DNA of 35,810 bases from a virus. Every line of letters begins with the position of its first letter. Position 1 is the first letter of the stretch. The notes under the pieces were generated by a model. The model had not been told where the DNA came from. It saw nothing but the letters and a program-made list of their open reading frames with translations, and searched no databases. The position numbers and the translations under genes are program-made. Location: positions 1 through 35,810 of the IMG/VR virus record IMGVR_UViG_3300046467_001379; one strand, 5' to 3'. This document shows, one piece after another, positions 5,482 to 28,022 of this stretch.

Positions 5482-5927
5482 ACACTAAAAAAATCCTAAT
5501 GGCAAAGATTCATATCGCCAAAAAAGACCTTGGCTTGGACGATGACACTTACCGCGATGTGCTGTGGCGCGTCACTGGTCAGCGTAGCTGCAAAGATATG
5601 ACCATTGCCCAGCTGCAAGACGTGGTGAAAGACATGGAAAAGAGCGGATTTAAGCCAAAAGCTGCGCCAAAGCATGGCAAAAAGCCGTCAGTCGTCGGCA
5701 AGCGTGAGCCACTAATGGGCAAAATCCACGCCATGCTGACCGATATGGGGCTGCATTGGAACTACGCACACGGCATGGCGGACAGCATGTTTAAGATTAA
5801 GCGTCTGCAATGGCTCAATGACTCGCAACTGTACAAGCTGACGCAAGCCCTGAGCGTGCATCAGAAGCGTGAAGCTAAAAAAGCGGCCTCAAATGAACGC
5901 AAAAAAGCAGAACCTGAACGCAAATGA
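5478..5927 (+). CDS. gemA: GemA / Mu gp16-like protein (DUF1018 family)
   Basis: This 149-residue protein has the gp16/GemA signature: an N-terminal MAKIHIAKKDLGLDDDTYRDVLWRVTG region, a lysine/proline linker, then a second helical part (MGKIHAMLTDMG, FKIKRLQWL, LTQALSVHQKR). Start GTG at 5478 overlaps the previous stop and has AAGGAG nine bases upstream. In Mu, GemA modulates host gene expression and DNA topology in the late-early phase and precedes mor, as here. The last codons run through the first of three 31-bp-spaced repeats (see 5891-5983). Confidence 0.85.
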   Translation: MNTKKILMAKIHIAKKDLGLDDDTYRDVLWRVTGQRSCKDMTIAQLQDVVKDMEKSGFKPKAAPKHGKKPSVVGKREPLMGKIHAMLTDMGLHWNYAHGMADSMFKIKRLQWLNDSQLYKLTQALSVHQKREAKKAASNERKKAEPERK

Positions 5928-5983
5928 ACGCAAACCTGTAATACAAGCGCGCAAATGAACGCAAATTGATGAACTTTTAATAT
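5891..5983 (+). repeat. Three iterons with a 31-bp period
   Basis: AAATGAACGCAAA occurs exactly at 5891-5903, 5922-5934 and 5953-5965, so the copies are 31 bases apart, close to three helical turns. A partial copy (TGAACGCAAA) at 5915-5924 adjoins the second one. The array covers the end of the gp16 gene and the gap before the Mor-like gene. Same-face spacing suggests a protein-binding array controlling the downstream activator gene; no binding protein can be named. Confidence 0.6.
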
Positions 5984-5997
5984 TTTTGGGGATATAG

Positions 5998-6444
5998 ATG
6001 AACGATCAAATGATAGATGCGCTAGTCGATGAGCTAAAGCCTGAGTTGCTGCCTGACATCATCGTCAATATCAGTGATTTGATTGGCTATAAAGCGACAT
6101 TGAAGCTGGTTGAAGCGTTTGGCGGTATCAAGTTTGCAATGCCAAGCGGTCAACGCGAAAGCAAGTACTTTGATGCGCTTATCAACGCAGTCGGCAATGA
6201 AGCCGCGCTGACGCTCACGCAAAACTATGGCGGTGAGCTGATCTATATCCCCTGCTGCCATGCTGCGTTTATCCAATTGCGTAATACAGAATTTAGACAA
6301 GCAGTAACGCGGGCGGTGGCTGGCGGCGAGGTGCAAACAGCGGTGATACATCGTTTGGCCTCGCAATACGGCTTTACTGAGCGCTGGGCTTATAAGGTCT
6401 TGGCTGCCGAAGCTGCTATCTACCAGCTCGATTTATTTAACTGA
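5998..6444 (+). CDS. mor: Mor/C-family transcription activator of the late genes
   Basis: This 148-residue protein belongs to the Mu Mor/C family. The N-terminal half is the dimerisation part (DIIVNISDLIGYKATLKLVEAFGG and a GELIYIP strand); the C-terminal half carries the HTH (AVIHRLASQYGFTERWAYKVL). The ATG is preceded by GGGGA eight bases upstream. Mor and C bind promoters lacking a good -35 box and recruit RNA polymerase. Only one family member exists in this genome, and three promoters with a shared 24-bp upstream element and no -35 box lie ahead of the late blocks, so it is the likely activator of all three; that link is inference. Confidence 0.9.
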   Translation: MNDQMIDALVDELKPELLPDIIVNISDLIGYKATLKLVEAFGGIKFAMPSGQRESKYFDALINAVGNEAALTLTQNYGGELIYIPCCHAAFIQLRNTEFRQAVTRAVAGGEVQTAVIHRLASQYGFTERWAYKVLAAEAAIYQLDLFN

Positions 6445-10916: not shown

Positions 10917-10921
10917 AATGC

Positions 10922-10969
10922 CTACCTGAACCGCATCATCTAACCGTATTGACCCTCTCTACTCATAAT
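10922..10969 (+). promoter_or_regulatory. Late promoter P1 with 24-bp shared activator element
   Basis: The element CTACCTGAACC...CATCTAACC at 10922-10945 is identical in all 24 positions to copies at 18072 and 23736. It ends 18 bases before CATAAT (10964-10969). The place of a -35 box holds the end of the element and no TTGACA-like sequence, as expected for a Mor/C-activated promoter. Transcription would begin near 10976 and read the lysis, packaging and portal genes. Confidence 0.8.
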
Positions 10970-11001: not shown

Positions 11002-11790
11002 ATGTCTGATCTAAATATCGTCGAAGAGCGTACGCAGTTTTTTGACTGGCTGCGCTATCAGCAACCCGAAAAATCACTGACTCAAGACAATGTCGATGCC
11101 GGTCATACACTGCTACTGAAATTTCGGACTGACGAGCTGCAAGAGCTGCTGATTCGCATTGGTCTTGCGCACCCGCCTGTACTGCTTATCCCAAATTCCA
11201 ATCCGCCAAAAGTACAGCGCGATGACATCATTATCGCTGCTGACCGTATCAATGTGCCTGCGGCTCAAATCAAAGCGCTGTCTGATGTGGAGTCGCCCAA
11301 AGGTGGATTTAACCCTGATGGCACGCCCAAGATTTTATTTGAGCGTCATAAGTTTTATCAAGCATTGACCGAGCTTAACTGGATCACCAAGCGTGACGAA
11401 ATGCGAGAAAAATACCCTGATATTTGCCATCCCAATCCAGGCTCATACAACACGCGACCGCAGTACGAAAAACTAGAAATCGCTGCAACGCTGAACTGGG
11501 ATGCCGCGCATGAATCTGCATCGTGGGGCTTTGGTCAAGTTATGGGCTTTAACTGGAAGTCGCTCGGCTACGACTCTGTGCGTGATTTTGTCACGCTGAT
11601 GTATGCATCAGAAGGCTGTCAGCTCGATGCGGTCTGTCGCTATATCAAGGTTAATAATCTAGATGATGAACTGCGCCGTAAAGACTGGGCTGGTTTTGCA
11701 AAAGGTTATAACGGTAAGAAATATCGCATCAATAAATATGATACCAAAATGGCGACGGCTCATACGCAAGCCAAAAAGAATGGGTGGTAA
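11002..11790 (+). CDS. Endolysin, N-acetylmuramidase family (DUF3380)
   Basis: This 262-residue protein has the N-acetylmuramidase pattern: a small N-terminal part (residues 1-75, possibly cell-wall binding), then DVESPKGGFNPDGTPKILF followed by ERHKFY, with Glu97 as the likely catalytic acid. The rest of the lysozyme-like domain includes ASWGFGQVMGFNWKSLGY and FVTLMYASEGCQLDAVCRYI. It cuts peptidoglycan at the end of infection. No signal peptide is seen, so export through a holin is expected; a holin candidate follows immediately. First gene after late promoter P1. Confidence 0.88.
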   Translation: MSDLNIVEERTQFFDWLRYQQPEKSLTQDNVDAGHTLLLKFRTDELQELLIRIGLAHPPVLLIPNSNPPKVQRDDIIIAADRINVPAAQIKALSDVESPKGGFNPDGTPKILFERHKFYQALTELNWITKRDEMREKYPDICHPNPGSYNTRPQYEKLEIAATLNWDAAHESASWGFGQVMGFNWKSLGYDSVRDFVTLMYASEGCQLDAVCRYIKVNNLDDELRRKDWAGFAKGYNGKKYRINKYDTKMATAHTQAKKNGW

Positions 11791-17970: not shown

Positions 17971-18071
17971 TCTCGACTACGCGCTTTTAACATCGCCATC
18001 ACGTCATTACAGCAAATATTAAGCAAAACGGCTTAAATCGCAAATAACAGCCGTTTGTATTTTATGCCTAA

Positions 18072-18119
18072 CTACCTGAACCGCATCATCTAACCATATT
18101 TAATGCCGCTCATCATAAT
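18072..18119 (+). promoter_or_regulatory. Late promoter P2 with 24-bp shared activator element
   Basis: The 24-bp element at 18072-18095 is identical to those of P1 and P3, and CATAAT (18114-18119) lies exactly 18 bases after its end. P1 and P2 also share TATT just downstream of the element and a G after the -10. No -35 box is present. It would transcribe the protease/scaffold, capsid, Acb2-like, connector and tail-tube genes. Confidence 0.8.
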
Positions 18120-18182: not shown

Positions 18183-19169
18183 ATGCCAAAAGACCACAAA
18201 AAGCCAAATATCTATCTGCTCTCTGAAGTCAATGTCGCTGATGCCCCTGCTGATGCGGATAAGTCGTTGCCGCGCAAGTTCAGTGGTGTCGCCAACTCTG
18301 GCAAGCCATTTAATCACTATGGCGAGATGGTCGTCGTTGACTTAACGGACATCCAATACAAGTCAAACGTCCCTGCGCTATTGCTGCATGACCGTGCCCA
18401 ACGTGCCGGATTTGGTACGCTCAGCGTCACAAATAATCAATTGCTCATCGATGGCACGTTGCTAGATAACCAGTTCGGCCGCGATGTCGCTGACGATTCG
18501 GATGCTGGATTCCCTTGGCAGATGTCTATTCATGTTAACGCTAATAGCATGACAGAGCTTGGGCAGAATGAAAAAGCAACCGTCAACGGTAGCGAGGTCA
18601 CTGGCCCACTCGTTATCCTCAAAAATTGCAGCGTCTCCGAGGTATCGTTTACCCCTACTGGTGTAGATGACGAAACCTCTGCCATCGCTCTAGCAGATAG
18701 CGGAATACCTAACTCATCAACTCCTCAACCCAATACGCAAAAGGACACCACCATGACTCCTGAAGAAATCGCAGCACTACAAAAGCTTGCCGCTGACCAA
18801 GCTGAAGAGATTAAGACTCTTAAAGAAGAAAAAGCCGAGCTTGAGAAAGAAAAAGCCGAAGCAGAAGCCGAAGCAAAAGCCGCTGCTATCGATGCGCAAT
18901 TATCACAAGCAGGCTTTACCAAAACTGAAGACGGCAAAGCATGGAACGGTGTCGGTACAGCGACGGTCAATATGCTGCTGTCTGCCAGTCCTGAAGATGC
19001 CAAAGCAATGATCGGTGATCTGCGTGCGCCAAATACGCAAGACAATGTGCCTGAGTATCTACTAGGTGAGCAGCACAAGCCCAGTAACGGTCAAGAGCGT
19101 CAGCTGTCTAGCAATCCGATGTTAGCCAATGCTGAAGCACGCGCCGCCGAGGCAAAAAACTATATCTAA
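18183..19169 (+). CDS. I: Phage protease with fused scaffold (Mu gpI-like)
   Basis: This 328-residue protein has an N-terminal prohead-protease part (residues about 20-165): VPALLLHDRAQRAGFG supplies the histidine region, PWQMSIHV a possible serine, and CSVSEVSFTPTGVD the closing strand motif. A linker leads to a C-terminal scaffold (residues about 191-328) with a long charged helix (EEIKTLKEEKAELEKEKAEA and repeats of Ala/Glu/Lys). It shapes the prohead and then digests the scaffold. An internal start at 18753 probably makes free scaffold. First gene after P2. Confidence 0.85.
   Translation: MPKDHKKPNIYLLSEVNVADAPADADKSLPRKFSGVANSGKPFNHYGEMVVVDLTDIQYKSNVPALLLHDRAQRAGFGTLSVTNNQLLIDGTLLDNQFGRDVADDSDAGFPWQMSIHVNANSMTELGQNEKATVNGSEVTGPLVILKNCSVSEVSFTPTGVDDETSAIALADSGIPNSSTPQPNTQKDTTMTPEEIAALQKLAADQAEEIKTLKEEKAELEKEKAEAEAEAKAAAIDAQLSQAGFTKTEDGKAWNGVGTATVNMLLSASPEDAKAMIGDLRAPNTQDNVPEYLLGEQHKPSNGQERQLSSNPMLANAEARAAEAKNYI
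18753..19169 (+). CDS. Z: Nested in-frame scaffold protein (Mu gpZ-like internal start)
   Basis: Inside the protease gene, AAGGA stands eight bases before ATG 18753, in the same frame, exactly where the scaffold domain begins. This would yield a 138-residue protein (MTPEEIAALQKLAADQAEE onward) identical to the protease C-terminus. Mu I/Z and lambda C/Nu3 use the same arrangement. Position and ribosome site are seen; expression is inferred. Confidence 0.55.
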   Translation: MTPEEIAALQKLAADQAEEIKTLKEEKAELEKEKAEAEAEAKAAAIDAQLSQAGFTKTEDGKAWNGVGTATVNMLLSASPEDAKAMIGDLRAPNTQDNVPEYLLGEQHKPSNGQERQLSSNPMLANAEARAAEAKNYI

Positions 19170-22512: not shown

Positions 22513-23253
22513 ATGGCACAACGAGGTAAGAAGTATAGCGGCGACTTGTACGCTCGCAAACACGGCACGATGGATGGCTTTATCTTAGTGGGTAATGTCA
22601 CTGAGCTATCGACCAGTAAAGACTCTGACAGCGACCAACTGACCAGCACCGGTCGCGGTGAGTATGGCGAAGTCATCGAAAACGAAAGTATCCCTGGTCC
22701 CACTGAACTGGCTATCAAGTTTAATACTTTTGATAAGACGGCAATGGCGCGAGTCATGATGGGTGAAGCGATTGACCTATCGACCACGCCTGTTGTATTT
22801 GCGGATGAGCCTCTGACCGTCGGTCTGAATTGGCTAAAGCTTGCCCATCGTGATATCGATGAGACGCAGCTGGTATTGACTGATTCGACCGATATCGTTA
22901 TTGATGCTAGTACTTACAAGGTCAACCCTCGCTTGGGCATGATTCAGTTTACGGCTGATAGCACGCTCGAGCCGGGCGCTGTTATTACGTATAGCGGCTC
23001 AACAGTTGGCTCAGCAGGCTATCAGATTGATGCAAACACGCTCACGTCTTTACCGCTTGAGATGTACTTGGATGGTAAAGACCGTATCTCTGGTCAAGAT
23101 GGCATCTTGGACATGCCACACGCTGAATTGTCTAGTGATAGCGATATCAACTGGTTTAGCGACGACTGGTGGGAAGGTGGTTTATCAGGGCCGCTCATCA
23201 AAGACACAGGCAAGCCAACGATGCGCTTTACCGAGTACAAACTCGCGCCGTAA
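22513..23253 (+). CDS. Tail tube protein (siphovirus major tail protein)
   Basis: This 246-residue, strand-rich protein is consistent with lambda gpV-type tube subunits with an added insertion domain: GFILVGNVTELSTSKDSDSD, GPTELAIKFNTFDK, then an inserted LVLTDSTDIVIDASTYKVNP beta region, and a closing SLPLEMYLDGKDR with ALSS-type strands. ATG follows AAGGA eight bases upstream. No sheath gene follows, so the tail is non-contractile. A strong terminator lies 30 bases after its stop, ending late block 2. Confidence 0.8.
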   Translation: MAQRGKKYSGDLYARKHGTMDGFILVGNVTELSTSKDSDSDQLTSTGRGEYGEVIENESIPGPTELAIKFNTFDKTAMARVMMGEAIDLSTTPVVFADEPLTVGLNWLKLAHRDIDETQLVLTDSTDIVIDASTYKVNPRLGMIQFTADSTLEPGAVITYSGSTVGSAGYQIDANTLTSLPLEMYLDGKDRISGQDGILDMPHAELSSDSDINWFSDDWWEGGLSGPLIKDTGKPTMRFTEYKLAP

Positions 23254-23281: not shown

Positions 23282-23327
23282 CCCAAAGAGCAGTAGACAA
23301 ATTTTGTTTACTGCTCTTTTTTGGGTT
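23282..23327 (+). terminator. Strong intrinsic terminator ending late block 2
   Basis: AAAGAGCAGTAGAC (23285-23298) pairs with GTTTACTGCTCTTT (about 23306-23319) around an A/T loop, with one G-U pair, and extends into TTTTTT. ACCC/GGGT further out can lengthen the stem. It is well separated from the small membrane-protein gene that follows. Confidence 0.9.
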
Positions 23328-23351
23328 ATGATGCGATATTACTTTACCGAT

Positions 23352-23372: not shown

Positions 23373-23735
23373 ATGAAGGGTCAGAAGGGTTTTACTTTTA
23401 TACATATATTAGGAATCGCTGTAGCTACAATCGTTCTTGCTATCTATATTTTTGCTGAAAAAAAACCGCTTGAAAAACCTCGAAGTGAGCAAGTGCAAGA
23501 GTTGTTTTTTGCTGATGGCTCTAATTATCAGTTAATCCAGTTAGTTAAAAAAAGCATGAATGATCCTGACTCATTTGAGCATGTTGAAACTAAATATGTG
23601 GATAACGGTAGCGGTGATGTCGTAATTTTTATGAAATTTCGAGGAAATAATGCTTTTGGCGCTAAAGTTTTAACTGAAGCAGTAGCTAATATTGATCCTG
23701 AGACAGAGATGATTACTAATTTAGTAACGAGGTAA
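23373..23735 (+). CDS. Self-contained membrane-anchored cargo gene (moron)
   Basis: This 120-residue protein has one N-terminal membrane span (FTFIHILGIAVATIVLAIYIF) after a short basic leader, then an exported domain with LVKKSMNDPDSFEHVETKY, a GDVVIFMKFRG strand and NNAFGAKV. The MxDPDSFEHV...FRGxNAFG pattern recurs in small accessory proteins of bacteria and phages whose function I do not know. ATG 23373 is preferred over 23304, which lies in the terminator. The gene is visibly A+T richer than its neighbours and sits between a terminator and late promoter P3. Superinfection exclusion is a reasonable guess. Confidence 0.75.
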   Translation: MKGQKGFTFIHILGIAVATIVLAIYIFAEKKPLEKPRSEQVQELFFADGSNYQLIQLVKKSMNDPDSFEHVETKYVDNGSGDVVIFMKFRGNNAFGAKVLTEAVANIDPETEMITNLVTR

Positions 23736-23783
23736 CTACCTGAACCGCATCATCTAACCACCAGCCGACCAAAGCACCACAAT
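23736..23783 (+). promoter_or_regulatory. Late promoter P3 with 24-bp shared activator element
   Basis: The 24-bp element at 23736-23759 begins directly after the stop of the membrane-protein gene and is identical to those of P1 and P2. CACAAT (23778-23783) lies exactly 18 bases further, matching CATAAT at the others in five of six positions. The start point would be near 23790, inside the left arm of the terminator hairpin at 23785-23810. It would transcribe the tail operon. Confidence 0.78.
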
Positions 23784-23784
23784 A

Positions 23785-23810
23785 ACCCTATCATTTGATG
23801 GGGTTTTTTT
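23785..23810 (+). terminator. Terminator hairpin overlapping the P3 start point and the tape-measure ribosome site
   Basis: ACCCTATC (23785-23792) pairs with GATGGGGT (23797-23804) around ATTT and leads into seven T, directly against the GTG start at 23811. Transcripts arriving from upstream would form it and stop, with GATGGGG also hidden. Transcripts starting at P3 begin within the left arm and should lack most of it, leaving GATGGGG free as ribosome site. Confidence 0.7.
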
Positions 23811-26800
23811 GTGGCTCAGAACTTTGAAACAGAACTCTTAATAAAAGCTGGTGTCCAAGGGTTGGAGACCATCGCCAAGCTCGCTTCTGAAATCGAAGCT
23901 GCTGGACTAGATGTGTCTAAGCTCAGCGAAGAAGGTCTGGCACTCAATAAAACCTTTAACGAGATTGACCAAAAACAAGGGTTGATTGATTTATTTCGCA
24001 ATCAAAAGCTAGCCGCTGTCGAGGCTTCAAAAGCCTGGCAAGACGCGCAAGAAAGCACCAAGACGCTCTCGCAAGAGTGGCAAGCTGCTGCGGTAAAAGC
24101 CGATGAGCTAAAAGCCGCAATGGAAGCCTCGGACGACGTCACCAAAGCGCAAAAAGATGAATACAAAGCCGCTGCCAAAGAAGTCGAAAACTATGCCAAG
24201 GCGCATGAGCAGTCTGTCATAGCTGCGGGCAAACTCAAAGACAAATACACCAATCTAAACGGCGAGCTAAGCGCGACCCGTCAAGCGATGGCAGATACTG
24301 GTCTGTCTACTACCGATCTCGCTGGTCAATCTGCCGAACTGTCAGCCCAAAGCGCCGCCGCGACTGAAGCCCTCGCAGAGCTGAATGCTGAAGCTGAAAG
24401 CCTGAGCGAAATCGCCAAAGCCAAAATTATCCTTGGTATCGAGACTGATGACGCGGCTCTAGCACAAATCGAAGAAATCAACCAAGCCTACGAGCTGCTA
24501 CGCGATAGCGGCACATTGTCTAGCTCAGAGCTAGCGGCCGCAACTGAAATACACACACAGCGGGTGCAAGAGCTAGAAGACAGCCTATCTGATGCCACCG
24601 ATGAAACGACCGACTTTGCAACCGAGCTTGGCAAGGTCACTGCTGCGGCTGGCGGATTGACTGTGGCCGTGCAGGCAGCAATGCAGTTCGAAGCAGCCAT
24701 GGCTGGTGTCAAAAAGACCGTTGATGGCTCACCAGAGCAAATCCAAGCCTTATCTACCGAGATTAAGCAACTATCGATTGATCTAGGCTTAAGCAGCGAG
24801 GCAGTAGCAGACATCGCGGCACAAGGCGGTCAGCTTGGCGTACCTATCGAGCAGCTCGGCGAATTTACTGAAATGGCGGGCAAGATGTCAGTCGCTTTCG
24901 GTATCTCAGCCGATGAAGCCGCTGAGTCTGCGGCACAGCTTGCCAACGTCTTTGGCATATCAATGCAGGACGTAGAAGCGCTCGGCGACGCCATCAATAC
25001 GCTAGGCAATAATACCGCTGCGACTGAGCCTGACATTATCAACTCAATGATCCGCATTGGTGGTACGTCTAAGCAGTTTGGACTGGCTGAAGAGCAAGCT
25101 GCTGCACTGTCAGCTGCTTTTATCGCTTTAGGCAAGACGCCAGAAGTCGCTGCTACTGCCGTCAATGGCTTGTTAACTAAGTTGCAAACCGCACAAGTAC
25201 AAGGCAAAGGCTTCCAAGATGCGCTTGACGGCATCGGACTGTCATCTGAGCAATTAGCAAAAGACATCAATGCCAATCCACAAGAAGCATTATCCAATTT
25301 CTTGGAGACATTGAGTGAGCTTGACGACCAACAGCGTGCTATCGCTACGTTTAAGCTGTTTGGTCAAGAGTACTCTGATGATGTCAATCTATTGGTCGGT
25401 AGCTTGGACACCTATAACGCCGCGCTGGGTCTGACTGCGGACAAAAACAAAACTGCTGGCGCAATGCAGACTGAGTTTGAAGCGCAGATGTCTACATCAG
25501 CAGCCAGTGCTGCACGCGCTGAAGCATCGCTCATGGCATTAACTCAAACACTGGGTCAGCACTTACTACCTATCGTTAGCGCGACTGCTAGTGGTGTCGC
25601 AGGCGTTGCGGGTGCGATTAATAGCTTTGCCGAAAGCTTTCCGATGGTCACTAAGCTGCTGGTACTGGTTGCCGGTGCTCAAGTAGCAATGGTTGCTCTC
25701 AAGAGTACGATTGCTCTAGCGGGTGCTGCTGGTGTAACGGCGGGCGCTAGTATCAGTGCTGGTATGACAAGAGCGACAACCTCAATACTAGGTGCAAATG
25801 TCGCAGCTGGTAGCTTAGCGGCACGTATGACCAGTCTTAGTGGGCTATTCGCTGTGGCGGCCGGATGGACGATTGGTACAGCCATCGGCGATAGTATGTA
25901 CGAAAACAGCTCAGCCGTACGCTCGTTTGGTGATGAGCTAGGCCGTGGCGTCGCTTATCTTGATGCGATTGTCACTGACCGCTCATTCGATGATGTGCGC
26001 AATAACTTTGAGACCAGCGCTGAGTCTGCTGCACGACTCGCTGAGACGCAAAAAAATGCTGTATCGGCAGCTGATGAATTAGTCATTGCTGAAGAAGCTG
26101 CTGCCAATGCTGCGCTAGAGCAAGCCGAAGCCAACCGCCAGTTGGTCAATGAAATATTGATTACTGAGGCAAACGTCAAGCAGATGACCAGCGCCCTCAC
26201 TGAAATGGCAGTGAATGGCGAGGCAAATAGTACCGCTTATAAAAATCTATCTAACGATCTGACAGAAACAAAAACTCGCCTAGAAGCGATGCATCTGGAA
26301 GCCAAAGCAAACAATCTTGGCGAGCTGCTCAAGTCTGACCTAGATCAAGCATCTGAAGCCTTTAAAGCCTTAGGTCTGGACGCGCAAGAATTTGCAACCG
26401 GTCTGAGCAGCAAGACGACGACTGCGCTAGCAGCATTTAGCGAAGTCGCCAAGCTCGCGGGCAATGACACAACCATGCTTGCCCGAGCTTATAGCGCGAC
26501 ATCAGAGCAAGTCGGCAACAACGTACAAGTCCAAGCCATGCTTGAGAAGCAATTGCTTGCATCTGTCAACGGTAACAGTCAGTTGGCCGCCGAGGTCAAG
26601 CGCGTCGCCATCGAGCAACGTAACGCCAAAAGCGCAGCAGATGAGCAAGCTGCGGCACTGTCACGCCTTGGCATCAGTATGGATGCTGTCAATAACGCCA
26701 TGAGTGCGTCAGGGCTTGAGATGGTTACCACGCTCAGAAGCGGTGTCGCGGCTATCAAAGAGCAAGCCACCAGTGCCGATGCTCTAAAAGTCGCGCTAAC

Positions 26801-28022
26801 TCAAGCGCTAGATACATCGATAGCAGCTGCCAAGACCAAGGCCGACTTTGAAGCAATCAATCAAACGCTAAGAGATGCGGGTGTCGCAGGCAAAGTCAAT
26901 GCTGACCAGATGAAGATACTACAAGCTGGTATGCAAGGCGGTGCAACTGCTGCCAAAACTGCTGCTGACGCGATTGCTGCACAAACCAACGCCTTATCTG
27001 CCAACACCTTAGCAAATACTTATAGCAGCAATGCTAGCAACGATAATGCAGATGCTAAAAAACGCCAAGCTGACGCGACCAACAAAGCCGCCGACGCGAC
27101 CGAAAAAGCCACCCAAAACGAGAGCGCCAGCCTTGCATTTATGCAGCAAGTCACCGGCGCTATCAAGACCAAGATTAGCGCATTGGAATCAATGGGCGCA
27201 ACCACAGAGCAGACGGATGCCGCTTGGTCGAAATTCATGGATAGCGTAGGGATATTTGAGGGTCGAAAGTTTTTAGGTATCCAAGACTTTACCAACAGTA
27301 TGAAGCGCGTCGATGAGGTCGTTACCTCGCAAGTGAGTAGCTTTGAAAATGCTAAAAACCGTGCCGATGAGATGACGCAAGCCTTGAGTGGTAGCGCTGT
27401 CACTAGCCGAGACCTTACGGATGCTCAGCACGCACTACGCCAAGCCACCAATGCCAACGTCCAAGGTCTTATCCGCATGGATGAGCAAACGCTATCCGGC
27501 TTGCAAAACGCTATTGATGGCGCTCGCCAACGTATGCAAGGCCTCACTGATGACGCAAAAAATACCGCTGACCAGTTAGAGGCGACACTCGCCAAGCTCA
27601 AAGGCAACGATGATAAAGCGCGTGAGATTGAGCAAAACCGCAAACTTGCAGACTTAGAAGAAAAGCGCCGTGAAGCTCGTAGCCGAGGCAATCGTGAAGA
27701 AGAAGCCGAGCTAAATCGTGCCTTGGATCTACAAAAGCAAATCAACCGCGAAGAAGAAAAACGCGCGCGCGAACAGGCACGCGAAGAGCAACAACGTGAG
27801 CAAGCTGCTCAAAATAGACAGTCTTCTAGTAATAACTCTAGCGCTAGTAACTCTGGTAATGGCCGTAATGCCAATAACAGCAATAGCGGCAACAATCAAA
27901 GCGCATCAGACGTTGCCGCAATGTGGGATGAGCGCATTGAACGCGCCAAAAAAGAAGCCGCCAAGCAAGCGGTAGATGACTTTATGAAACAACTAAAAGA
28001 CGAGGCTAAGAGACGCACATGA
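23811..28022 (+). CDS. Tail tape measure protein
   Basis: This 1403-residue protein sets tail length and is probably ejected with DNA. Residues about 30-260 form long coiled coils rich in Ala, Glu and Lys. The TP901-type core follows (residues about 285-480: MQFEAAMAGVKKTVDGSPEQ, LGLSSEAVADIAAQGGQLG, AFIALGKTPEVAATAVNGLL). Hydrophobic segments lie near 600-690 (VTKLLVLVAGAQVAMVAL). More coiled coil follows, then an Asn/Ser/Gly-rich linker near 1345 and a basic end. GTG start at 23811 uses GATGGGG. At about 0.15 nm per residue the tail would be near 210 nm. No tail-chaperone pair precedes it. Confidence 0.93.
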   Translation: MAQNFETELLIKAGVQGLETIAKLASEIEAAGLDVSKLSEEGLALNKTFNEIDQKQGLIDLFRNQKLAAVEASKAWQDAQESTKTLSQEWQAAAVKADELKAAMEASDDVTKAQKDEYKAAAKEVENYAKAHEQSVIAAGKLKDKYTNLNGELSATRQAMADTGLSTTDLAGQSAELSAQSAAATEALAELNAEAESLSEIAKAKIILGIETDDAALAQIEEINQAYELLRDSGTLSSSELAAATEIHTQRVQELEDSLSDATDETTDFATELGKVTAAAGGLTVAVQAAMQFEAAMAGVKKTVDGSPEQIQALSTEIKQLSIDLGLSSEAVADIAAQGGQLGVPIEQLGEFTEMAGKMSVAFGISADEAAESAAQLANVFGISMQDVEALGDAINTLGNNTAATEPDIINSMIRIGGTSKQFGLAEEQAAALSAAFIALGKTPEVAATAVNGLLTKLQTAQVQGKGFQDALDGIGLSSEQLAKDINANPQEALSNFLETLSELDDQQRAIATFKLFGQEYSDDVNLLVGSLDTYNAALGLTADKNKTAGAMQTEFEAQMSTSAASAARAEASLMALTQTLGQHLLPIVSATASGVAGVAGAINSFAESFPMVTKLLVLVAGAQVAMVALKSTIALAGAAGVTAGASISAGMTRATTSILGANVAAGSLAARMTSLSGLFAVAAGWTIGTAIGDSMYENSSAVRSFGDELGRGVAYLDAIVTDRSFDDVRNNFETSAESAARLAETQKNAVSAADELVIAEEAAANAALEQAEANRQLVNEILITEANVKQMTSALTEMAVNGEANSTAYKNLSNDLTETKTRLEAMHLEAKANNLGELLKSDLDQASEAFKALGLDAQEFATGLSSKTTTALAAFSEVAKLAGNDTTMLARAYSATSEQVGNNVQVQAMLEKQLLASVNGNSQLAAEVKRVAIEQRNAKSAADEQAAALSRLGISMDAVNNAMSASGLEMVTTLRSGVAAIKEQATSADALKVALTQALDTSIAAAKTKADFEAINQTLRDAGVAGKVNADQMKILQAGMQGGATAAKTAADAIAAQTNALSANTLANTYSSNASNDNADAKKRQADATNKAADATEKATQNESASLAFMQQVTGAIKTKISALESMGATTEQTDAAWSKFMDSVGIFEGRKFLGIQDFTNSMKRVDEVVTSQVSSFENAKNRADEMTQALSGSAVTSRDLTDAQHALRQATNANVQGLIRMDEQTLSGLQNAIDGARQRMQGLTDDAKNTADQLEATLAKLKGNDDKAREIEQNRKLADLEEKRREARSRGNREEEAELNRALDLQKQINREEEKRAREQAREEQQREQAAQNRQSSSNNSSASNSGNGRNANNSNSGNNQSASDVAAMWDERIERAKKEAAKQAVDDFMKQLKDEAKRRT

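What the first reader, a model, noticed from the sequence alone, without database searches (positions are those of the whole stretch)
23736..23811. Terminator that blocks read-through but not its own overlapping promoter
The hairpin 23785-23804 plus seven T ends right at the tape-measure GTG. Predicted P3 transcripts start near 23790, inside the left arm, so they cannot form the stem, while transcripts from upstream can. The right arm carries the GATGGGG ribosome site, so upstream messages would also have it masked. This would be a compact insulation switch making tail synthesis depend on P3 alone.
Basis: inference. Interest (0 to 1): 0.7.

Follow-up and report, generated by a model that had tools for sequence, protein, structure and literature searches.

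The report
Phage start site inside a terminator
In this Mu-like phage the start signal for the last block of tail genes lies inside a transcription stop hairpin, so messages arriving from upstream should be stopped and silenced while messages started on the spot escape, and related phages of several bacterial genera share the design.

Summary
Observation confirmed: a 9-bp hairpin (23784-23805) plus T tract ends at the tape-measure GTG (23811). P3 is supported by comparison: a 25-bp box occurs three times (10921, 18071, 23735), each 18 nt before a -10. With the start at A23790 the box core lies at -50 to -35, like the Mor site of Mu (-51 to -36); the window encodes a Mor-family protein. The hairpin's left arm begins exactly after the -10, so P3 RNA lacks six of nine left-arm bases. 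The hairpin recurs in 12 of 12 P3-type promoters of Moraxellaceae phages (five stem types), 5 of 12 P1 and 0 of 16 P2, and at late promoters of Shewanella, Pseudoalteromonas and Pseudomonas phages. One relative has the terminator without ribosome-site masking, another the hairpin without a T tract. Best reading: a hairpin that only read-through RNA can form insulates the tail operon from a variable cargo gene. Read-through masking is known (T4 gene e); joining it to an intrinsic terminator at Mor/C-type promoters seems a new variant. Nothing was measured at the bench. Side result: the same promoter signature precedes tiny toxin-like peptides on Psychrobacter plasmids.

The parts
23735..23759 (+). 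P3 activator box (predicted Mor/C-family site), -55 to -31
   Evidence: Three copies in the window; conserved in relatives; position agrees with the Mor site of Mu Pm
23778..23783 (+). P3 -10 hexamer CACAAT
   Evidence: Same 18-nt spacing from the box in all three copies
23790..23790 (+). Predicted P3 transcription start (A, seventh base after the -10)
   Evidence: A in 33 of 41, T in 8 of 41 distinct promoters at this position; not mapped
23784..23810 (+). T2: intrinsic terminator hairpin 23784-23805 with T tract 23804-23810; its left arm is the P3 discriminator and first bases
23797..23803 (+). Ribosome site GATGGGG in the right arm
   Evidence: Sequence; opening cost
23811..28022 (+). Tape measure protein gene, GTG start
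   Evidence: PF10145 1.9e-36, phrog_28
23285..23319 (+). T1: strong terminator after the tail tube gene
   Evidence: dG about -20; core identical in relatives
23304..23332 (+). Possible cargo promoter: TTGTTT 23304-23309 in the T1 arm, 17 nt, TATGAT 23327-23332
   Evidence: Conserved TATGAT after T1 in relatives; not listed by the generic scan; inference
23373..23735 (+). Variable cargo gene, 120 aa, unknown function
   Evidence: No Pfam hit; phrog_3403 5.3e-11, unknown function
22513..23253 (+). Major tail protein
   Evidence: phrog_807 9.5e-28
10921..10969 (+). P1: box 10921-10945 and -10 CATAAT 10964-10969, before the muramidase gene 11002-11790; terminator just upstream of the box
18071..18119 (+). 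P2: box 18071-18095 and -10 CATAAT 18114-18119, before the head protease gene 18183-19169; weaker terminator upstream
5998..6444 (+). Mor-family activator, the presumed activator of P1-P3
   Evidence: PF08765 3.4e-13, phrog_836 5.8e-30

Best explanation
P3 is a Mor/C-type late promoter whose discriminator and start site form the left arm of an intrinsic terminator, T2. RNA polymerase arriving from upstream, above all from the cargo gene's own promoter, copies both arms; the hairpin plus U tract stops it, and any RNA that gets past has the tape-measure ribosome site buried in the right arm. Polymerase recruited to P3 late in infection starts at A23790, copies only ATC of the left arm, cannot make the hairpin, and gives a 21-nt leader with a more accessible ribosome site. 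The result is a one-way insulator: cargo can be expressed in the lysogen without tail genes, and tail genes come on with the activator. Shown: anatomy, register, conservation, pair covariation, folding. Inferred: start site, activator binding, termination, silencing, timing.
For: Three boxed promoters with equal spacing; Mor-family gene in the window; box core at -50 to -35 against the Mor dyad -51 to -36. Hairpin starts at the base after the -10 in 12 of 12 P3 promoters, while 0 of 16 P2 promoters have one. Two stem pairs changed on both sides between the window and L001. Opening cost of the ribosome site 13.9-21.2 kcal/mol in read-through RNA and 1.5-7.2 in RNA from +7, 11 of 11 junctions. 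Same register in phages of other genera with other boxes. Variable cargo between T1 and T2 in relatives.
Against: No start, binding, termination or expression was measured. The window's own P3 RNA keeps some structure over the ribosome site (7.1 kcal/mol). Contig 2816332558 P3 has its ribosome site after the T tract, HS6 hairpins have no T tract: neither half is universal. In L141 one stem pair is broken. DMS3, B3, Mu and Kp ST405 have no hairpin ending at the TMP start. Many of the 12 P3 promoters are close relatives, so 12 of 12 is not 12 independent events.
Confidence: 0.75

Rival explanations
1. T2 is only the terminator of the cargo cassette; its overlap with P3 and with the ribosome site is compact packing, and masking of read-through RNA has no function.
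For: Cargo ends just upstream and its transcripts need an end. Contig 2816332558 P3 keeps the terminator without masking. Marinobacter phage AS1, annotated with a Q-type antiterminator and no Mor gene, also has a plain terminator right before a GTG at the tape measure gene.
Against: The exact register after the -10 in all P3 cases and at some P1 promoters without such cargo, and HS6 hairpins that lack a T tract but cover the start codon region, point to selection for a structure that only read-through RNA can make.
Confidence: 0.17
2. The hairpin is an attenuator or 5' stabiliser of P3's own transcript, which would start upstream of 23784.
For: The structure is stable and conserved.
Against: A start before 23784 would fall inside the -10; +7 is A or T in 41 of 41 promoters, A in 12 of 12 P3.
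Confidence: 0.04
3. The late RNA from P2 runs through T1 and T2 with the help of an antiterminator, and P3 is minor or unused.
For: The order tail tube, cargo, tape measure would allow one operon.
Against: A repeated promoter sits directly before the tape measure gene and the phage has a Mor-type activator. I did not make a full search of the window for antiterminators.
Confidence: 0.04

Closest known systems
T4 lysozyme gene e (also soc, 49, I-TevI) leader structures, review PMC3014915 (passages)
   Same: Longer read-through RNA hides the ribosome site; RNA from late promoters that lie over the 5' strand of the structure lacks that strand and is translated
   Different: Here the same hairpin also has a T tract (terminator), the promoter is Mor/C-type, the protected gene is a tail gene, and the hairpin register is fixed to the -10
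Phage Mu late promoters (C) and middle promoter Pm (Mor), PMC4461284 and PMC4287176 (passages)
   Same: Activator site just upstream of a weak promoter without a good -35; promoters before lysis and head protease genes
   Different: One Mor-family gene was found in the window; the third promoter heads the tape measure gene; overlapping terminator. No such hairpin ends at the TMP start of Mu
IS10/Tn10 protection from external promoters (recalled, no paper found)
   Same: Read-through RNA folds over the ribosome site while RNA from the element's own promoter does not
   Different: A phage late promoter; here the hairpin is also a terminator
Moron/cargo cassettes in prophages (recalled; search listing only); accessory genes among the late clusters of Fc02, PMC9936078 (passages)
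   Same: A variable gene between structural genes with its own terminator
   Different: Here the downstream terminator is merged with the promoter of the next late operon

Membership tests
Mor/C-activated late promoter (Mu type) | Mor/C-family activator encoded by the phage | tested here: met
   PF08765 3.4e-13, above cut-off; phrog_836
Mor/C-activated late promoter (Mu type) | Conserved site at about -55 to -35 upstream of a weak promoter | tested here: met
   Core -50 to -35, block -55 to -31, if the start is at +7
Mor/C-activated late promoter (Mu type) | Dyad symmetry of the site | tested here: inconclusive
   By eye only TGA-N6-TCA in the core; no statistic computed
Mor/C-activated late promoter (Mu type) | Activator binds and activates | not testable with these tools
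   Needs footprinting and transcription assays
Intrinsic terminator | G+C-bearing hairpin followed at once by a T tract | tested here: met
   dG -11.8, seven T
Intrinsic terminator | RNA 3' ends at the T tract | not testable with these tools
   Needs Term-seq or in vitro termination
T4 gene e-type read-through masking | Ribosome site paired in longer RNA, more open in RNA from the near promoter | tested here: met
   In silico only: 21.0 against 7.1 kcal/mol
T4 gene e-type read-through masking | Promoter lies over the 5' strand of the structure | tested here: met
   Left arm starts at the base after the -10
T4 gene e-type read-through masking | Measured fall in translation of read-through RNA | not testable with these tools
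   Needs reporters

The most novel reading that the evidence does not exclude
The same late-promoter signature has been captured as a phage sensor: on small Psychrobacter plasmids or plasmid-like contigs it stands before tiny hydrophobic, toxin-like peptides of two unrelated kinds, in genomes in which no Mor homologue was found. An infecting Mu-like phage's own activator would switch the peptide on and kill the cell before phage release: a natural phage-triggered suicide cassette, in one case next to restriction-modification and HEPN/DUF262 genes.
Probability: 0.3. Interest if true: 0.85.

Novelty: new variant of a known kind. Interest (0 to 1): 0.6.

Why it matters
It would explain how a temperate Mu-like phage can carry an expressed cargo gene in the middle of its tail genes without making tails in the lysogen, using about 75 bp. 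It gives a simple sequence rule (a hairpin arm starting right after the -10) for finding late promoters and insulators in phages without transcript data, and relatives that keep only one half of the device (terminator only, or hairpin without T tract) make its two functions separable by experiment. The box also led to plasmid loci that may be phage sensors.

Tried and rejected
Generic sigma70 scan: does not list P3, and the number of sites is at shuffle level. Terminator abundance: my scan is close to shuffle level, so counting hairpins says little. Search of annotated phages by DNA: no match. Promoter/terminator overlap as a term: 3 papers listed, none on the subject by title; a five-term search on intrinsic terminator, phage, overlap, ribosome site and read-through found no paper. 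Searches for IS-type protection found none, so IS10 is recalled. Phage-inducible suicide plasmids: no paper held all four terms.

Relatives without the design: DMS3, B3, Mu and Kp ST405 have no hairpin ending at the TMP start; MuM16-1 TMP has none either, only its two box promoters do; in VW-6B one of two box promoters has it. SuMu has a terminator before its amidase start, but I could not define a -10 there and did not count it. G308 was first read as a tape-measure junction; its ATG opens a five-codon frame and the gene behind it is another one. In one search G005_P1 also scored as overlapping (-9.3) without a real T run; I treat it as false, and one search gives -3.3 and no overlap there. 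In MuM16-1 P1 the 29 nt after the -10 do not fold better than shuffles (221 of 500 at least as stable), because there the -10 itself is in the arm.

Rows dropped before the counts: L009, L010, L130, L132, L134, L146, L147 and L166 as repeats of contigs or near-identical phages already counted, L008 kept for P2 only; the other hits, which by context lie in unrelated contigs, and L087 and L088, as chance. The P3 class was set by position (after the tail protein or before the tape measure gene), not by the hairpin. L119 (plasmid-like, other -10 spacing) is not among the 41 promoters. L141 (-7.8) is not counted among the 5 of 12 P1.

Full report
What is there. The window is a virus record (35810 bases) of a Mu-like siphophage: Mu transposase domains, Mu Gp36 and Phage_tail_S, a tape measure protein at 23811-28022 and a Mor-family late activator at 5998-6444.

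P3 is supported by comparison. A 25-bp box occurs three times, only on the + strand, at 10921, 18071 and 23735; shuffles gave a mean of 0.00. Each is followed after exactly 18 nt by CATAAT, CATAAT or CACAAT. The three head the muramidase, the head protease and the tape measure gene. With a start seven bases after the -10, the box core falls at -50 to -35. In Mu Pm the Mor dyad is -51 to -36 and the Mor footprint -56 to -36 (PMC4287176, passages); C sites of Mu late promoters are also upstream of, or overlap, the -35 (PMC4461284, passages). Over 41 distinct promoters of this kind (36 phage, 5 plasmid or plasmid-like) the base at +7 is A in 33 and T in 8.

Register of the hairpin. In the 12 P3 and the overlapping P1 promoters the first paired base is the base directly after the -10. 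In phages of other genera the same holds for HS6 P1 and P2, MuM16-1 P2 and VW-6B P1; in MuM16-1 P1 the -10 is itself in the arm and the predicted start falls in the loop. Six of nine left-arm bases of the window hairpin are therefore upstream of the predicted start and cannot be in P3 RNA; what remains is ATC.

Conservation. I compared promoters of Moraxellaceae phages and prophages found by tail protein and by box patterns. After removal of repeats: P3 class 12 of 12 with the hairpin, P1 class 5 of 12 (a sixth, L141, is weaker at -7.8), P2 class 0 of 16. Many of these are close relatives. Five stem types occur at P3 (AACCCTATC with GACCCTATC; GACCCTAGTA; CCCCTTAA; GCCCG; ACCGCTAT) and two at P1 (CCCCTTAAA; GCTCATAA); the first two share a core, and CCCCTTAA is shared by P1 and P3, so they are not all independent. 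Between the window and L001 two stem pairs change on both sides (T-A to G-C, C-G to T-A; read); in L141 one pair is broken. In one search (25 promoters) those without overlap mostly have a terminator just upstream of the box: all six Psychrobacter-type P1 and six of eight P2 (two have none). G004 P3 has both, the upstream one weak.

Beyond the family. Shewanella phage MuM16-1 has its own exact box twice and a terminator ending near the ATG in both places; Pseudomonas phage VW-6B has its box twice and the device at one; Pseudoalteromonas phage HS6 has hairpins in the same register at both of its related promoters but without a T tract. DMS3, B3, Mu and Kp ST405 show nothing of the kind at the tape-measure start.

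Two functions. The cost of freeing ribosome site and start codon is 13.9-21.2 kcal/mol in read-through RNA and 1.5-7.2 in RNA from +7, in 11 of 11 junctions examined (8 of the 12 P3 and 3 P1); 21.0 and 7.1 for the window. The window's 7.1 shows that its site is not fully open, as it can pair weakly with the start of the coding sequence. Contig 2816332558 P3 has the terminator with its ribosome site after the T tract, HS6 has the hairpin without a T tract. What all share is a hairpin that only read-through RNA can make.

Why there. Between the tail protein and the tape measure gene lies a slot with changing genes: a small membrane-type protein here, lipoprotein-like and other small genes in L001 and L003, regulator-like genes in L012, a Dam-like gene in L014 (names by my reading of the translations); B3 carries a Com-like and a DNA methyltransferase gene at the like place. 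In the Psychrobacter phages the slot opens with T1 and a conserved TATGAT that may be a cargo promoter with its -35 in the arm of T1 (inference). T2 closes it. RNA-seq of the B3-like phage Fc02 shows three late clusters, the second apparently limited by a rho-independent terminator, with accessory genes among them (PMC9936078, passages). The simplest account is insulation of late tail genes from cargo transcription in the lysogen; I have no transcript data for this phage.

Known or new. Read-through masking with a late promoter over the 5' strand is known for T4 gene e, and masking also for soc, 49 and I-TevI (PMC3014915, passages). I found no description of its combination with an intrinsic terminator at Mor/C-type promoters in searches, nor in the listing on D3112-type phages; the library lacks most subscription papers. 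I call it a new variant of a known kind.

A side result. The box with 18 nt and a -10 also stands on small Psychrobacter contigs of five genomes (L114-L118), and with another -10 spacing on a sixth (L119); these carry relaxase-, Rep- or restriction-type genes by my reading of the translations. One is plasmid 1 of P. cryohalolentis K5, where the neighbours are annotated as a type II restriction-modification pair, a HEPN-like nuclease and DUF262. Behind the promoter are unannotated 27-33 aa hydrophobic frames of two kinds; one resembles Hol_Tox PF16935 weakly and below the cut-off (E 0.0019 and 0.0074), the other has no hit. None of the six genomes has a match to the window's Mor protein, whereas six of seven genomes with the prophage do. 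The pattern had 0 control hits in 348 genomes. This could be a phage-activated suicide gene; it is untested, and descent from phage remnants or control by another factor is possible.

Noticed in passing
L114-L119; NC_007968.1 33193-33239 (- strand): The late-promoter box with its -10 stands before tiny hydrophobic frames (27-33 aa) on small Psychrobacter plasmids or plasmid-like contigs, in genomes without a Mor match.
   Followed up: partly
23285-23332: Terminator T1 seems to overlap a promoter as well: TTGTTT in its right arm, 17 nt, TATGAT, conserved in relatives with different cargo genes.
   Followed up: partly
L177 (HS6) upstream of 25355 and 14999, - strand: Hairpins starting right after the -10 and reaching the start codon but without a T tract: masking without a terminator.
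   Followed up: partly
L146 7475, L153 6385: A possible fourth, weaker promoter of the same kind (CTGAAC, TTCCCCT, CATAAT) before a gene that follows the tape measure gene in Moraxella phages.
   Followed up: no
about 5887-5945: The word GCAAATGAACGCAAA or close variants repeats several times just upstream of the activator gene (context lines).
   Followed up: no
L176 (Marinobacter phage AS1) 9650: A plain terminator directly before a GTG at the tape measure gene in a phage annotated with a Q-type antiterminator and no Mor gene.
   Followed up: no
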